Source: Saccharicrinis aurantiacus (GTDB taxonomy: Bacteria > Bacteroidota > Bacteroidia > Bacteroidales > Marinilabiliaceae). Taken from it: a stretch of 64,000 bases of DNA. Of this stretch, positions 19,686 through 34,983 are shown in pieces. A model generated the notes under the pieces. That model made no database searches. It saw only the letters and a list, made by a program, of their open reading frames with translations, and was not told the origin of the DNA. The number at the start of each line of letters is the position of its first letter. The first letter of the stretch is position 1. The stretch is taken from assembly GCF_001660705.2 (NCBI RefSeq), contig NZ_LYBV02000034.1, positions 124,001 through 188,000 on the forward strand. Reading direction: 5' to 3'. The position numbers and the translations under genes are program-made.

Positions 19686-19738
19686 AGTAAGTTAGTGACT
19701 TAAGCGTAAAATAGTAGCTCAAGTTATATAACTTACTA
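19685..19738. repeat. Inverted repeat between the HNH-like gene and proC
   Basis: A 10-bp perfect inverted repeat TAGTAAGTTA/TAACTTACTA (19685-19694 with 19729-19738) encloses the intergenic gap. One arm includes the stop codon of the HNH-like gene. There is no T-run, so it is more likely an mRNA structure than a terminator. Confidence 0.55.
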
Positions 19739-20323
19739 ATATTCTACGCCATTAATTTCTATTTTAACATGTCCCCAGTTTTCACCAGACTTAATACGAT
19801 ACAGTTGCATTTCGCTAATTCCAAATTGCTTTGCAATAATCTTAAGTCTTGACTTCCTATTGGGGTCAAAAATCTTCTTTTTTAATCTAATCACTTCTGT
19901 TGAAGTCAACTTGTGCCCTTGAACTGTTTTGCGTCCTTTAAGCTTTTGTCTGGCTCCAATTACAGCTGGATTACTTTGTTGGTGCTCATATACCTCATCC
20001 TTAGTGCTCCATTTTAAATTCTCGATGTAATTATTAGATTTATTATAATCTAAATGAATTACGAATGTAGCATCCTCGCTAGGTTGTTCTAAAAAATACT
20101 GTGCAACTAATTTATGCACGTAAAAAGTTTTTGATTTTCCGAATGGGCGAATAGGCAAAGTAGGATAACCACGTAGGACTCCTCCTCTAATTACATCACC
20201 TTCTTTTACAGAAGTAATGTAACTAACTATTCTTCCGTAATTCGAAATCGCATACTTTTTCTTAAGAGCGCCTTCTTCAAAATTAATCTCTTTCCACTCT
20301 TCGTTCCAGAAAGATTTAACCAT
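19736..20323 (-). CDS. NUMOD4/HNH-like protein with C-terminal helix-turn-helix
   Basis: A 195-residue protein that does not belong to any amino acid pathway. The N-terminus (EEWKEINF, then YAISNYGRIVSY) matches NUMOD4, a DNA-binding element of homing endonucleases. The middle has an HNH-like array (YVHKLVAQYFL, then VIHLDYNKSNNYIENLKW). The C-terminus (RLKIIAKQFGISEMQLYRIKSG) looks like a helix-turn-helix. It lies in line with argD (41-base gap) and proC (50-base gap). It could be a homing-type element or a co-opted regulator. Nuclease activity is not certain. Confidence 0.72.
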   Translation of the reverse strand: MVKSFWNEEWKEINFEEGALKKKYAISNYGRIVSYITSVKEGDVIRGGVLRGYPTLPIRPFGKSKTFYVHKLVAQYFLEQPSEDATFVIHLDYNKSNNYIENLKWSTKDEVYEHQQSNPAVIGARQKLKGRKTVQGHKLTSTEVIRLKKKIFDPNRKSRLKIIAKQFGISEMQLYRIKSGENWGHVKIEINGVEY

Positions 20324-29025: not shown

Positions 29026-29152
29026 AGGGTGTGTCCCTCGTCAGCACATTTGTCAATAACTTCAGCGGTATTAAGCTCGGGCCGCGCTTTCCACTATATC
29101 TTTAGTCGCCATAATGGGCTCCCAAAGGATGCCGTTGCAATCGCTCACACAA
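29026..29152 (+). repeat. Interspersed repeat element, copy 1
   Basis: Begins CAGGGTGTGTCCCT. It shares a long core with the reverse complement of 33068-33199: CTTTCC-CT-TATCTTT, then CGCCATAATGGGCTC-CAAAGGATGCCG-TGCAAT-GCTCACACAA. I recognise this core as a type of repeat seen in many Bacteroidota intergenic regions, from memory only. This copy lacks the 40-base extension present in copy 2 and has extra bases near its 5' end. Confidence 0.75.
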
Positions 29153-29594
29153 AAATATTAACTATCTGTTGAAAAATATAATATCTTCTATAAAGTTATA
29201 AAACTGTAATAGATATCACTGTTCAAAACTTAGAACAATTGAAACCCTACATGATTAATAATATAATATTATCTTTCAATGGTTTCACTGTTAATATATA
29301 TGCAAGAATTTGGGTTAAATGGAAATAACCTCTCTTAAAAACTACTAATAGCCAAACGCGAATGTTTGATAACTACGTTTAAACAGAACATGGGTAAAAA
29401 TTCGGTTCTGCACTTATTAACAAGTCGATATACTAGTCAGGAACTACGAATAAATAGACAGCAGTAAACACTAATATATTGAGCACATTAGCTGCCTTTT
29501 TAAGATGGAGTGAGTAAGTAATACTACTTTATCAACAAAGCAAAAGAGCGAGACATTATCGGCTGCGATTAGGCATTTACATCACACGAAGTAA
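29153..29594. other. Spacer without a recognisable gene
   Basis: About 440 bases of AT-rich sequence with frequent stops in all frames. No promoter of the TAnnTTTG type, hairpin terminator or RNA gene was recognised. It may hold the decayed 5' part of the broken gene that follows. Confidence 0.5.
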
Positions 29595-30514: not shown

Positions 30515-31309
30515 ATGATACTAAGTAATACCGAAATCACGCATCGCGTATCTGCAAATCAATTAATTGAACCATTCGAAGCATCCAGCCTAAACAATAC
30601 ATCCTATAAAATCAGAATAGGAGAGATTATTGAACCAAAAAGTGGAAACATTTATAATGGCGATGGATACTTCTTGGAACCTGCAGAAGTCGTAATAATT
30701 AAATCTAAAGAGAAAGTGAAAATACAGCAGGATCTCACCGCATCGTATTCTGCATTACATACAATTTCATCGCAAGGTATATTACTCATTAATGCTAGTA
30801 TGATTGAGGCTGGTTACGAGGGCTACTTAAGTTGTATATTACTAAACTTTTCTGCAGAACCAATTGTCATTTATGAAAACCAAGAGATTGTAAGAATCAA
30901 TTTTTTTAAAACAAGTCAGATTCCACAAAACGCGTCTGCAATCAAGATTGAAGAAAACCGATACAGAAATGACCTTAAGCGTAGTGCTAGGAGATATCAT
31001 AATTCATTCTTAAATATAAAAGGCTTAGAAACTAAAATTTCGAATAAAGTATTTGGTAAAGTGAAATCACAAATTGTTTTAGGAAGCATACTTATTGGTA
31101 TATTGATTCTATTTTCAACATTAGAACCTCTTTTTTCTAAATGGATTTGGGAAAAAACAGGTCGAATATATAGATATGAACAATATGAGGTTAAAAAAGC
31201 AATTGAAGAATTTAAGAAGCTAAAAGAAGACAACAATAATTATATAAATTTGCAGAATCAGATTGATAGCTTAGAACAATTGATAAACACAGAAAACATT
31301 GACAAATAA
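30515..31309 (+). CDS. Membrane-anchored dUTPase/dCTP-deaminase-fold protein
   Basis: A 264-residue protein. Residues 1-150 follow the dCTP deaminase/dUTPase beta fold: ILSNTEI at the start, SSLNNTSYKIRIG (24-36), YFLEPAEVVII (52-62) and SMIEAGYEGYLS (95-106), the equivalent of the motif around the catalytic acid. The acid is Glu rather than Asp, the deaminase SxAR motif is SSQG (85-88), and the deaminase catalytic Glu position is Leu. One membrane segment (186-203) and a coiled coil (about 222-260) follow. Deaminase activity therefore seems unlikely. It overlaps the methyltransferase gene by 11 bases. The function is unknown. Confidence 0.75.
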   Translation: MILSNTEITHRVSANQLIEPFEASSLNNTSYKIRIGEIIEPKSGNIYNGDGYFLEPAEVVIIKSKEKVKIQQDLTASYSALHTISSQGILLINASMIEAGYEGYLSCILLNFSAEPIVIYENQEIVRINFFKTSQIPQNASAIKIEENRYRNDLKRSARRYHNSFLNIKGLETKISNKVFGKVKSQIVLGSILIGILILFSTLEPLFSKWIWEKTGRIYRYEQYEVKKAIEEFKKLKEDNNNYINLQNQIDSLEQLINTENIDK

Positions 31310-32003
31310 AAATTTAATATACTATTCAAAAGATGGTTACAACAAGGTTGCTGAACAATATGACTCATGGAAATGGCAAAAATTCTGGCATAAAAATGAG
31401 CTTCCACTTATAGAAAATTGGATAAGCAAATTAAATGTAGGTATAGGACTCGATGCTGGCACTGGTAGTGGAAATACATTGTTCCCTATACTAAAATTTG
31501 GACATAAGGTAATTGCTGTTGACAATAGTGATAAAATGTTACGTATCTGTAGTAGAAAGTTCGAATATTACATCCTTAACAAACAACTCACTTGTCGTGA
31601 ATTAGACATCTCTAAACAAAATTTTTACCATAACAATTTTGATTGGATAACTTGTAACAGAGTACTCTCAAATATTAAAAACATAGGGCTTGCATTTAAA
31701 ACCTTCTCTAATATCCTAAAAGAAAATGGCCAATGTTTTATCTCTGATATTCACCCCTTACATAATTATACAGATACTAATATTCCATTTGATAAAAGGA
31801 AAATTCATATAGAAACATATAAACACTCAATTAAAAGCATCAAAGACCATATTCATAATTATGGTTTTGAAATAATTGAATTTAAAGAGATATATGTTAA
31901 TCAATTATTAGATCAAACGCTTCTAGATGAATTCCCTAATTTACTATTTCAAGACACACCAATTTTTTACTATACAATAATAAAAAAATGCATAAGGATC
32001 TAG
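31299..32003 (+). CDS. Class I SAM-dependent methyltransferase, TTG start
   Basis: A 234-residue Rossmann-fold methyltransferase with motif I LDAGTGSGNT (51-60), the acidic residue D75 in VIAVDNSDKM, and post-I segments (NFDWITCNRVLSNIKN). There is no ATG before residue 80, so the TTG at 31299 is the likely start. It lies inside the 3' end of the upstream gene (11-base overlap), which suggests coupled translation. The substrate is not apparent. Its tight pairing with a membrane-anchored nucleotide-enzyme fold is unusual. Confidence 0.8.
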   Translation: MTNKNLIYYSKDGYNKVAEQYDSWKWQKFWHKNELPLIENWISKLNVGIGLDAGTGSGNTLFPILKFGHKVIAVDNSDKMLRICSRKFEYYILNKQLTCRELDISKQNFYHNNFDWITCNRVLSNIKNIGLAFKTFSNILKENGQCFISDIHPLHNYTDTNIPFDKRKIHIETYKHSIKSIKDHIHNYGFEIIEFKEIYVNQLLDQTLLDEFPNLLFQDTPIFYYTIIKKCIRI

Positions 32004-32396
32004 CGCGAATTTCTAATACGTGCAATAAGCGTTAAGTAAAGGATTAAGGATTTACATTTAAAAGAAGTTAGCAATTAAAATAAAAAGTAAGGGTTTGTAA
32101 CAGATAGTCTTTCAATATAAATGTTTCACGAATTACGCTGCGCTTAGTCCGCGCGAGCGAGGTAATGAATTTAACATGATTAAAGTTGAAATTATTCTGC
32201 AGTCACGAGCTAAAAGCTCGCGCTAGCAATGCGAGGACTCGTTCAGTAGCTTTAGCGAGGAACGAAACAATATTAAGGCATTTTGCATCTCGCCTCGCCA
32301 TGACGAGGCGCTTTTGGTCTTAATACGTCATACTGAAAATTAAGTAATACCCGCATTCAATGCAAAGTATTTATGATTTTGATATATTGGCACATA
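32004..32396. repeat. Repeat-rich spacer with decayed REP-like elements
   Basis: No gene is seen in about 390 bases. It contains CGAGCT-AAA-AGCTCG (32206-32220), CGCCTCG-CCATGA-CGAGGCG (32291-32310) followed by TACGTCAT, and GCGAGGAACGAAACAATATTAAGGCA-like sequence at about 32255-32280 (fewer than 20 contiguous bases match the other copy). Together they resemble the element at 28902-28982 in a decayed, rearranged form. Local base composition is richer in G+C than its surroundings. Confidence 0.55.
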
Positions 32397-33067: not shown

Positions 33068-33199
33068 TCGTAATCACCACAAACCCCAATAAATCCCACT
33101 GCAGGTTCTTGTGTGAGCAATTGCAGCGGCATCCTTTGTGAGCCCATTATGGCGAAACAAAGATACAGCGGAAAGTGCGACCCGCAGGGGCACACCCTA
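33068..33199 (-). repeat. Interspersed repeat element, copy 2
   Basis: In minus orientation it reads TAGGGTGTGCCCCTGCGGG, then CTTTCCGCTGTATCTTTG, CGCCATAATGGGCTCACAAA, GGATGCCGCTGCAATTGCTC and ACACAAGAACCTGCAGTGGG, ending near ATTTATTGGGGTTTGTGG. It matches copy 1 over most of the core. The pssA stop codon (33197-33199, TAG) is formed by the first bases of this element. Confidence 0.78.
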
Positions 33200-34059: not shown

Positions 34060-34983
34060 TTAATCGACAAAATGGGTGTTTGGAAATTCACTTTTTAAAG
34101 AGTGCTCATAAATGGCTTTATTTTTATAATAATTATTTGCGTACAGATAGACTTCCTTACCCAACATTGAGGCTGTTATGGCCACATGCAAGCGATTGGT
34201 ACGAACCACACTGAATTTATTAATCAGGTTTACAAACTTGTAAGTAGAATAGTTTAATAAGCCTAAATTATGAGTTCCGAACATGTAAACCTGAGACAAA
34301 TCGATATTATTTACTGGCAGATCTATGTCTGTTTTTTCTTCATCCTCTCTAAAACACACGAGGGTATCTGGCGTTGATTTTTTAGTGAGTTGAATCAATT
34401 GTTGTTCATGATTTATACTCTGCACGTACTTGTTATAATTGGGGAGTTCGCTGCCTTTTTTGCTAGCTATTAACTTATAAAATACCTTTAAAAGAAGGAT
34501 ATGAATGGGTGATTTTGTTTTAAAGGAGAGGATTTTGTTGATATCGAGATGAAAAGCCATATCGTGCGACAAATAAACATTTGCGGCCATGTTGATATCT
34601 TTTAAATAGTTATAACTGATTTGCTCTCTAACGATAATATCAACTGTACTTGGCAGGTTTTCCAACAGTTCTTTATGATCGTTTACAGTGTGTGGCAGCA
34701 GCACAAACTTGTTGGCTTTTGCAGCATGTTTTGTAATAAACTTTTTAGCATGATTATAATTCTTCACCAAATTACCTCCACCACCATAAGCCACTAATTT
34801 ATTCTCGGAATTAAAACTTAATGGGTCGTTGATATATTCATATTTAATATTGTGCTTCTCGAAAAAATGAAAGGTACCCAAAGCAATGATTGCATCTCCT
34901 GCATTACCCGGATTTGGCGAGTAATACAACACTCCAAACTCTTTGTTTAACTGCTTTAGGTATTCTACTAAATTAAAATTCAT
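34060..34983 (-). CDS. Polysaccharide pyruvyl transferase family protein
   Basis: A 307-residue protein of the pyruvyl transferase family. It begins with SPNPGNAGDAIIALGTFHFF (22-41), followed by AYGGGGNLV and a C-terminal half with VVRTNRLHVAITASMLGKEV. The family transfers pyruvate from phosphoenolpyruvate to sugars of surface polysaccharides. No other sugar gene is adjacent, so the acceptor is unknown. Confidence 0.82.
   Translation of the reverse strand: MNFNLVEYLKQLNKEFGVLYYSPNPGNAGDAIIALGTFHFFEKHNIKYEYINDPLSFNSENKLVAYGGGGNLVKNYNHAKKFITKHAAKANKFVLLPHTVNDHKELLENLPSTVDIIVREQISYNYLKDINMAANVYLSHDMAFHLDINKILSFKTKSPIHILLLKVFYKLIASKKGSELPNYNKYVQSINHEQQLIQLTKKSTPDTLVCFREDEEKTDIDLPVNNIDLSQVYMFGTHNLGLLNYSTYKFVNLINKFSVVRTNRLHVAITASMLGKEVYLYANNYYKNKAIYEHSLKSEFPNTHFVD

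What the first reader, a model, noticed from the sequence alone, without database searches (positions are those of the whole stretch)
30515..32003. Membrane-anchored dUTPase/dCTP-deaminase-fold protein overlapping a TTG-initiated methyltransferase
The first gene has a nucleotide-enzyme fold (SMIEAGYEG motif, LSNTEI start), one membrane segment and a coiled coil. The deaminase catalytic Glu and the SxAR Arg are missing, and the acid at the dUTPase motif is Glu. The next gene overlaps it by 11 bases, has no ATG and uses TTG. The pair lies between repeat clusters, away from metabolic genes. Nucleotide-sensing or nucleotide-depleting defence is one idea, because dCTP deaminase is a known antiphage enzyme. 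The membrane anchor and altered residues suggest a binding or sensing role instead.
Basis: partly seen in the sequence, partly recalled or inferred. Interest (0 to 1): 0.72.

Follow-up and report, generated by a model that had tools for sequence, protein, structure and literature searches.

The report
Membrane nucleotide-receptor gene paired with methyltransferase
Two overlapping bacterial genes, a membrane-anchored relative of dCTP-processing enzymes and a methyltransferase, recur side by side in distant bacteria and look like a compact nucleotide-signalling module for defence against phages, though this has not been tested at the bench.

Summary
Window 30515-31309 encodes a Dcd/dUTPase-fold domain, one hydrophobic segment and a long C-terminal helix ('DCD-TM'); 31299-32003 encodes a class I SAM methyltransferase that starts at TTG and overlaps by 11 bases. 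The pairing is not chance. Searches with the first protein alone gave 17 core loci; in 7 of 17 (Bacteroidota, Alphaproteobacteria, Actinomycetota) the next gene is the same methyltransferase family. The other 10 have another enzyme next door: TS-fold proteins nearest CMP 5-hydroxymethylase MilA (6), divergent dCMP-deaminase-like (3), HAD phosphatase (1). None of 26 control Dcd/dUTPase loci had a methyltransferase, TS or deaminase neighbour. The deaminase Glu is absent in 24 of 24 DCD-TM proteins aligned; the motif-3 acid is Glu only in the 7 methyltransferase-linked ones. Known defence genes lie near several loci (Gabija, PD-Lambda-2, NsnA, restriction). Best reading: the enzyme makes a modified pyrimidine nucleotide and the Dcd-fold protein is a receptor coupled to a membrane effector, working like Kongming (activation) or Panoptes (inhibition). 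Ligand, polarity, substrate and phage resistance are untested.

The parts
30515..31309 (+). DCD-TM: Dcd/dUTPase-fold domain (residues 1 to about 135), conserved linker (Y150, F165-L166), one hydrophobic segment, long C-terminal helix; 264 aa
   Evidence: ORF; Pfam DCD 4.6e-16; AF2 model and Foldseek to Dcd/dUTPase structures; alignment of 16 homologues
30797..30823 (+). motif 3, SMIEAGYEG (residues 95-103); S95, M96 and E98 are invariant in the 7 methyltransferase-linked homologues and absent from the 10 TS/deaminase/HAD-linked ones
31067..31123 (+). hydrophobic segment SQIVLGSILIGILILFSTL (residues 185-203), predicted single membrane span
   Evidence: hydropathy; more Lys/Arg in the 15 residues on its N side than on its C side in 14 of 17 core members, equal in 3, which weakly puts the Dcd domain in the cytosol
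31299..32003 (+). class I SAM-dependent methyltransferase, 234 aa, TTG start, overlaps the first gene by 11 bases; family hallmarks W-x-WQ-x-FW, H155-x-Y157 and K175-H176
   Evidence: Pfam Methyltransf_11 6.3e-14; 7-member family alignment; AF2 pLDDT 90; fold
32291..32310 (+). terminator-like hairpin 287 bases after the methyltransferase stop; possible end of the unit
   Evidence: consensus scan only

Best explanation
A two-gene nucleotide-signalling defence module. The methyltransferase methylates a pyrimidine (most likely deoxycytidine-type) nucleotide; the Dcd-fold domain, which lacks the deaminase Glu, binds the methylated nucleotide or its triphosphate; the bound state controls the membrane segment, which damages or depolarises the membrane and aborts phage infection. 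With no separate phage sensor in the pair, the trigger must come through the nucleotide pool: either a phage supplies the substrate or the kinase that turns the mark into the ligand (Kongming-like, activating), or the ligand is made all the time and holds the effector off until phage enzymes deplete it (Panoptes-like, inhibitory). Shown here: conserved gene pair, fold, loss of the deaminase Glu, exchange of the partner among nucleotide-type enzymes, defence genes near several loci. Inferred: substrate, ligand, polarity, membrane effect, phage resistance.
For: Searches with the membrane protein alone gave 17 core loci; 14 of 17 have a same-strand enzyme gene next, from a 29-base overlap to a 21-base gap (start of the L017 partner unsure), 3 of 17 a divergent deaminase gene. 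Partners by Pfam: methyltransferase (1 of 7 scanned), thymidylate synthase (4 of 6), dCMP deaminase (3 of 3), HAD (1 of 1); the rest by profile. A more distant member, L072, overlaps a ThyX gene by 4 bases. 0 of 26 control Dcd/dUTPase loci, none with a C-terminal hydrophobic segment, had a methyltransferase, TS or deaminase match in the flanks held (HAD and ThyX not looked for). The 6 TS-like partners match CMP 5-hydroxymethylase MilA at 1.5e-59 against 6.7e-26 for the best thymidylate synthase and have Asp where E. coli TS has Asn177 (numbering and its meaning, cytidine-nucleotide preference, are recalled). Three unrelated methylase folds beside one receptor family suggest a shared kind of product. 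Fold: Dcd/dUTPase, Foldseek E about 1e-11. Deaminase Glu absent in 24 of 24, present in 3 of 3 ordinary Dcd. The two proteins diverge together (r 0.86 over 21 non-independent pairs). Defence neighbours: GajB and capP (L009), PD-Lambda-2 B and C (L010), NsnA (L006), type II RM (L004, L011, L014); 52 PADLOC families among 85 neighbours against 2 among 100 matched controls. A distant relative lies 10 bases from a PADLOC dCTPase, E 1.3e-100 (L077).
Against: No experiment. The methyltransferase family has no invariant Cys, so it is not an obvious C5-pyrimidine methylase; the nearest solved enzymes methylate phosphoethanolamine, quinone-type or natural-product substrates (METTL6 and Trm9, tRNA enzymes, are also on the list), so a nucleotide substrate rests on the partner exchange alone. 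No PADLOC match for the membrane protein; only partial matches for the partner. By locus the defence comparison is modest: at least 4 of 11 test loci against 1 or 2 of 11 controls, and my own choice of neighbours. A full-length methyltransferase relative on a plasmid has no DCD-TM match in the 12.6 kb held (L104). TS-like relatives occur with other partners (4 of 40 plasmid records looked at). Two distant DCD-TM loci (L069, L070) show no partner in the ORF maps. The window's own neighbours were not scanned against PADLOC; Pfam of four of them showed no defence family above cut-off. The pair's first gene is absent from 60 of 60 relatives.
Confidence: 0.5

Rival explanations
1. Inhibitory signalling or toxin-antitoxin form: the membrane protein is toxic by default and the methyltransferase product (or the enzyme itself) keeps it off; phage depletion of the nucleotide releases it, as in Panoptes. 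This is the opposite polarity to an activating signal.
For: Two-gene layout without a phage sensor, enzyme plus membrane protein, overlapping genes. Panoptes (PMC12657230, abstract and start of introduction seen) is a proven example with a constitutive nucleotide and a membrane effector.
Against: No data on toxicity. In the 3 deaminase-linked core loci the enzyme gene is divergent and not translationally coupled.
Confidence: 0.3
2. Pool-cleaning pair: the membrane protein is an active NTP diphosphatase of the dUTPase kind that removes odd pyrimidine nucleotides, and the partner enzymes are salvage or modification enzymes; no immune role.
For: Closest solved relatives by profile, 8y1w and 9ln0, are titled dUTPases and lack the deaminase Glu in the printed alignments; motif-3 Asp is kept in 17 of 24 members.
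Against: Motif-3 acid is Glu in the window protein and all 7 methyltransferase-linked members; a hydrophobic segment (19-residue mean above 1.6) in 17 of 17 core members; scattered distribution (1 of 61, 2 of 395, own genome included) and defence neighbours are unlike housekeeping.
Confidence: 0.15
3. Metabolite biosynthesis: the pair tailors a nucleoside natural product, as MilA does in mildiomycin-type pathways (pathway recalled).
For: TS-like partners are closest to CMP 5-hydroxymethylase MilA; two TS-like relatives sit in Geobacillus and Streptococcus plasmid operons with PqqD, AAA and phosphotransferase genes.
Against: No shared set of biosynthetic or export genes is evident in the maps of the core loci (most ORFs not scanned); partners exchange between unrelated enzymes; RM, Gabija and PD-Lambda-2 neighbours.
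Confidence: 0.08

Closest known systems
Kongming (KomABC, dITP as immune signal; passages of review PMC12948488)
   Same: A small enzyme alters an ordinary deoxynucleotide; a receptor senses the altered nucleotide and triggers an effector.
   Different: KomA acts on dAMP (deaminase type, recalled) and the effector depletes NAD; here the enzyme is a methyltransferase (in sister loci MilA-like TS, dCMP deaminase, ThyX) and the receptor is a Dcd fold fused to a membrane segment. No homology tested or claimed.
Panoptes (mCpol + 2TMbeta; PMC12657230, abstract and start of introduction)
   Same: Two genes, nucleotide-making enzyme plus membrane effector controlled by the nucleotide.
   Different: Cyclic dinucleotide cyclase and a different membrane protein; signal is inhibitory. 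Polarity unknown here.
Dcd / bifunctional Dcd-dUTPase / archaeal dUTPase (PF22769; 4xjc, 2qlp, 8y1w)
   Same: Fold and sequence family.
   Different: Deaminase Glu and the Ser and Arg of RSSLGR are absent in the window protein, motif-3 Asp replaced by Glu, membrane segment and long helix added.
AvcD-type antiphage dCTP deaminase (PADLOC dCTPase; PMC10511110, abstract and passages)
   Same: A deoxycytidine-nucleotide theme in defence; one distant DCD-TM relative (L077) lies 10 bases from such a gene.
   Different: AvcD is itself a deaminase that depletes dC nucleotides; the L077 neighbour has a Pfam zinc-type dCMP deaminase domain, a different family from the Dcd fold.
DefensePredictor validated and predicted systems (PMC13092281, sections 5, 8 and legends read)
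   Same: Validated set includes thymidylate synthase and 5-hydroxymethyluracil kinase domains (dNMP kinase named in the figure legend); a dUTPase is among the unvalidated predictions; distant DCD-TM relatives sit in operons with such domains (L074, L105).
   Different: The DCD-TM + methyltransferase pair is not mentioned in the text seen; supplementary tables were not readable.

Membership tests
dCTP deaminase (Dcd) | Dcd/dUTPase fold and sequence family | tested here: met
   PF22769 4.6e-16; Foldseek 4xjc, 2qlp, 1xs4
dCTP deaminase (Dcd) | catalytic Glu (LEFYN) and Ser/Arg of RSSLxR | tested here: not met
   Ile and LHTISS in the window; Glu absent in 24 of 24 DCD-TM proteins, present in 3 of 3 ordinary Dcd; NCBIfam dCTP_deam 58.5 bits against cut-off 92.8
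dUTPase | motif-3 catalytic Asp | tested here: not met
   Glu98 in the window and in 7 of 7 methyltransferase-linked; Asp in the other 17 of 24; NCBIfam dut 18.3 bits against 102.55
dUTPase | dUTP hydrolysis | not testable with these tools
   needs purified protein
Class I SAM-dependent methyltransferase | SAM fold with glycine-rich motif I and acidic motif II | tested here: met
   invariant D52, G54, G56, G58, D75 in 7 of 7; Pfam above cut-off; fold
Pyrimidine C5-methylase | catalytic Cys | tested here: not met
   no invariant Cys in the 7 methyltransferases
CMP 5-hydroxymethylase (MilA-like), for the TS-like partners of sister loci, not the window gene | closer to MilA than to thymidylate synthase; active-site Cys and Asp | tested here: met
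   MilA 1.5e-59 against 6.7e-26; Cys150 and Asp181 invariant in 6 of 6; activity not tested
Kongming | KomA, KomB and KomC genes | tested here: not met
   two-gene pair of other Pfam families; analogy of logic only
Panoptes | mCpol + 2TMbeta genes | tested here: not met
   other Pfam families; analogy of layout only
antiphage defence system | confers phage resistance | not testable with these tools
   only genomic context available
antiphage defence system | location among known defence genes | tested here: inconclusive
   at least 4 of 11 loci against 1 or 2 of 11 matched controls; 52 families among 85 proteins against 2 among 100

The most novel reading that the evidence does not exclude
A new class of immune signalling in which a modified pyrimidine mononucleotide is the signal: a dCTP-deaminase fold without the deaminase Glu, fused to a membrane segment, is the receptor-effector, and unrelated methylases (SAM methyltransferase, MilA-like TS, ThyX) or dCMP deaminases have been recruited repeatedly to write the mark.
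Probability: 0.35. Interest if true: 0.87.

Novelty: new variant of a known kind. Interest (0 to 1): 0.72.

Why it matters
Base-modified nucleotides as immune signals are a recent idea; Kongming is the one example I met in the papers seen. This family would add a pyrimidine arm, a new receptor fold and a membrane effector in only two genes, with several interchangeable signal-making enzymes. It would also give a testable role to the recurrent operons of TS, nucleotide kinases, MazG and Dcd-like membrane proteins, some on plasmids, of which parts have been predicted or shown to defend but not explained.

Tried and rejected
Tried without result: single-sequence pattern scans of genome and viral collections and a profile scan of viral contigs found no relatives; tblastn of phages found none. 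The A1 scan of the phylum hit 181 of 395 genomes, but the matches listed are mostly short and weak, of ordinary dUTPase or Dcd size; I kept L020, L021, L022 and L046 as DCD-TM-like and used L023-L045, L047, L048 as controls.

Considered and rejected: (a) that the pair is a chance neighbourhood, because homologous pairs exist in three phyla; (b) that the flanking inverted repeat marks a mobile unit, since it is dispersed; (c) an empty-site proof in genus mates: carB was not found near pssA in the stretches fetched from 8 genus mates (one of them ends about 1 kb past pssA), so only absence of the pair can be stated; (d) that TTG is a mis-called ATG: none is available that keeps the N-terminus; (e) that motif-3 Glu alone proves inactivity: two ordinary Dcd proteins carry it; (f) a locus-level claim of strong defence-island enrichment: too few loci.

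Definition and dropped rows: 'core' is the 16 rows of alignment A2 plus L068; with the A2 profile these score 218 bits or more, all others 91 or less. Eight distant loci (L069, L070, L072-L077) were not counted as core: neighbours are ThyX (L072), radical SAM (L076), dCTPase (L077), TMK-like kinase (L074), unscanned genes (L073, L075), none seen (L069, L070). L070 was left out of the 24-row alignment. L005 is the same gene as L011 and counted once; L020, L021, L022, L046 are shorter fetches of L074, L076, L077, L075. L061/L078 (a second weak hit in the Blastococcus genome) has no C-terminal hydrophobic segment and was not pursued. In one search the tool scored at most 7 first-look candidates per genome, so misses are possible. 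PADLOC neighbours (30 proteins, some of them partners) were chosen by me; searches used complete ORFs of 180-1300 aa, called greedily, from 11 of the 17 core loci and 11 controls on the same contigs, about 50-100 kb away; only 25 of the 52 families were printed.

Literature: searches (open-licence PubMed Central only; listings and abstract starts seen) showed no paper that describes this pair; Burroughs 2015 (nucleotide-centric systems) is not held and no supplementary tables could be read, so it may be described there.
Full report
What is there. The window carries an ATG ORF at 30515-31309 (264 aa) followed by an ORF at 31299-32003 (234 aa) that starts at TTG and overlaps it by 11 bases. The first protein belongs to the dCTP-deaminase/dUTPase family (Pfam DCD 4.6e-16, above cut-off) but scores well under the NCBIfam cut-offs for dCTP deaminase and dUTPase. 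It adds one hydrophobic segment (residues 185-203) and a long C-terminal helix. The AF2 model, from an alignment of 14 sequences, has block-mean pLDDT 87-95 over the first 130 residues and about 48-72 along the helix 168-260; Foldseek puts it with Dcd and bifunctional Dcd-dUTPase structures at E about 1e-11. The second protein is a class I SAM methyltransferase (Methyltransf_11 6.3e-14; model pLDDT 90; generic SAM fold). The genome holds one copy of the first gene. GC of the two genes is 0.31 and 0.28 against 0.35 for the window and 0.39-0.41 for three neighbours.

Is the pairing real? The first protein is rare: found in 1 of 61 genomes of kin, its own, and 2 of 395 of the class sample, its own included. 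A profile search for it alone, with no reference to the neighbour, gave 13 loci in named genomes; two came from plasmids, and a sample of 385 Alphaproteobacteria gave 7 matches, one of them the query's own genome and one more a clear core member (L068, 3.0e-64). I define 17 core members: window, L003, L004, L006-L018, L068; with the A2 profile all score at least 218 bits and no other locus more than 91. In 7 of 17 (window; Prevotella MAG L006; Agrobacterium rubi plasmid L003; Rhizobium L009; Sinorhizobium kostiense L010; Sphingomonas L015; Blastococcus L008) the next gene is the same methyltransferase family, sharing an N-terminal W-x-WQ-x-FW motif and C-terminal H-x-Y and K-H residues beyond the SAM core. 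In this order the genes overlap by 11, 29, 4, 4, 4, 0 (abutting) and 4 bases. The two proteins diverge in step (Pearson 0.86 over 21 pairs, not independent). In the reciprocal test over the same 385 Alphaproteobacteria, 8 genomes match the methyltransferase profile at 1e-20; only one match is full length (3.8e-94, positions 1-220) and it is the one beside the DCD-TM gene; the other seven (1.6e-22 or weaker) lie within positions 31-195 and their neighbours were not examined. Against this, a Rhizobium leguminosarum plasmid carries a 37% identical, nearly full-length methyltransferase with no DCD-TM match in the 12.6 kb held (L104).

What the other members show. In the other 10 core loci the neighbour is a different enzyme: six TS-fold proteins (L007, L012, L013, L016, L017, L018), three divergent dCMP-deaminase-like proteins (L004, L014, L068) and one HAD phosphatase (L011). 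L007 has a deaminase-like gene on its other side as well. The TS-like set matches CMP 5-hydroxymethylase MilA at 1.5e-59 and the best ordinary thymidylate synthase at 6.7e-26; it keeps an invariant Cys in the active-site stretch and has Asp at the position of Asn177 of E. coli TS in 6 of 6. The numbering, and that this Asp favours cytidine over uridine nucleotides, are recalled, not from a call. Among 8 more distant loci, L072 overlaps a ThyX gene by 4 bases (Thy1 1.1e-47), L076 has a radical-SAM gene, L077 a dCTPase, L074 a thymidylate-kinase-like gene, two have neighbours I did not scan (L073, L075) and two show none (L069, L070). As a control, 0 of 26 loci of Dcd or dUTPase genes without a C-terminal hydrophobic segment had a methyltransferase, TS or deaminase profile match in the flanks held (about 1.4 kb each side, less for L034, about 7 kb for L071). 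The three profiles were made from the partners themselves, and HAD and ThyX were not looked for in the controls. A tree of the 17 core proteins plus L072 groups them by partner (0 of 200 shuffles as low); the three deaminase-linked are one group; the seven methyltransferase-linked are not one clade in the best tree, but that is not rejected (p-AU 0.376); the six TS-linked are rejected as one group (p-AU 0.00015), so partners were exchanged at least there.

Active-site state. On an alignment of 24 DCD-TM proteins (17 core and 7 distant) with three ordinary Dcd and one dUTPase, the dCTP-deaminase Glu is absent in 24 of 24 and present in the 3 Dcd. The motif-3 acid is Glu in exactly the 7 methyltransferase-linked proteins and Asp in the other 17; S95, M96 and E98 are invariant in the 7 and never seen in the 10 TS/deaminase/HAD-linked ones. 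So this part of the pocket changes with the partner, as expected if it reads the partner's product, although shared descent of the seven would give the same. It does not prove loss of catalysis: two ordinary Dcd proteins also have Glu there, and the solved dUTPases 8y1w and 9ln0 lack the deaminase Glu in the printed alignments.

Defence context. PADLOC finds known or candidate defence genes near several core loci: GajB 2.2e-175 and capP 9.2e-54 (L009), PD-Lambda-2 B 2.7e-67 and C 6.2e-25, divergent from the pair (L010), NsnA 3.8e-92 (L006), type II restriction-modification (L004, L011, L014) and PDC-S11 (L014). With complete ORFs of 180-1300 aa from 11 core loci (pair excluded) and from 11 stretches of the same contigs about 50-100 kb away, 85 test proteins matched 52 PADLOC families at 1e-40 and 100 control proteins matched 2, AbiEi and AbiEii. 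Family counts are inflated because one protein hits many models; by locus it is at least 4 of 11 (L006, L009, L010, L014) against 1 or 2 of 11. Cytosine-methylase, EcoRII-type or Vsr genes beside L004, L011, L014 and L017 hint at a 5-methylcytosine theme. The distant relative L077 lies 10 bases upstream of a gene matching PADLOC dCTPase at 1.3e-100, a protein with a weak P-loop match and a dCMP-deaminase domain. Other distant relatives sit in longer operons: L074 with TMK-like kinase, 5-hmdU-kinase helical domain, TS and MazG, and on plasmids L105-L107 with annotated IrrE and HTH genes and various of TS, nucleotide kinase, MazG and UDG; all three plasmid proteins have the C-terminal hydrophobic segment. 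DefensePredictor (sections 5, 8 and legends read) reports validated systems holding TS and 5-hydroxymethyluracil-kinase domains and lists a dUTPase among unvalidated predictions.

How it most likely works. The recurring design is one enzyme, mostly of a kind that alters pyrimidine nucleotides, next to one Dcd-fold membrane protein. The simplest common function is that the enzyme writes a mark on a nucleotide and the Dcd fold, whose known relatives bind pyrimidine triphosphates, reads it and drives the membrane segment. The pair has no separate phage sensor, so the trigger must act through the pool. Two precedents bracket the options: Kongming, where phage and host kinases complete an altered nucleotide that activates the effector (passages of review PMC12948488), and Panoptes, where a constitutive nucleotide holds a membrane effector off (abstract and start of introduction of PMC12657230). 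I cannot tell which applies. The methyltransferase has no invariant Cys, so N- or O-methylation is at least as likely as C5-methylation. Lys/Arg counts (more on the N side of the segment in 14 of 17 core members, equal in 3) weakly place the Dcd domain in the cytosol.

Local setting. The first gene is absent from all 8 genus mates and neither gene is found in the stretches around their pssA. In 6 of those 8, pssA and the heavy-metal ATPase gene lie 0.03-2.1 kb apart, and no match to the window's 34060-34983 gene, which lies between them here, was found in any of the 8 stretches; carB was not found in them either. The nearby 50-nt inverted repeat is one of 40 listed matches in the genome. This is consistent with lateral acquisition but gives no clean empty site.

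Verdict. A real, rare, widely scattered two-gene module, best read as a nucleotide-signalling membrane effector of defence type; a new variant of a known kind. I found no description of it in the listings. Confidence that the pairing is real is high; confidence in the mechanism is about one half.

Noticed in passing
   Followed up: partly
L003:9942-12252 and L010:9070-11369: Downstream of the pair in A. rubi and S. kostiense lies a P-loop domain fused to an adenylosuccinate synthetase-like domain, then a DUF7002 protein (domains scanned in L003 only); an unusual fusion that may be a separate nucleotide-based module.
   Followed up: partly
L074, L105, L106, L107: Longer operons with a DCD-TM protein plus various of TMK-like kinase, 5-hmdU kinase helical domain, TS, MazG, HTH, IrrE, C1 peptidase and UDG, three of them on plasmids.
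   Followed up: partly
L123:4495-7468 and L124:4477-7473: TS-like protein of the same profile followed by a conserved 304-312 aa protein without a predicted membrane segment (FGNHRKYESL stretch) and an IrrE peptidase: another kind of partner for the TS-like enzyme.
   Followed up: partly
L004, L011, L014, L017: Cytosine-methylase, EcoRII-type or Vsr genes beside DCD-TM loci, suggesting a 5-methylcytosine nucleotide theme.
   Followed up: partly
window 34060-34983: Polysaccharide pyruvyl transferase gene between pssA and the heavy-metal ATPase gene; no match to it in the stretches around pssA of 8 genus mates.
   Followed up: no
window 29106-29155 and 33106-33155: 50-nt inverted repeat, a dispersed repeat with 40 matches listed in the genome.
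   Followed up: yes
window 19736-20323: ORF resembling a NUMOD/HNH homing-type endonuclease (recalled resemblance, not scanned) inside the arginine gene run.
   Followed up: no
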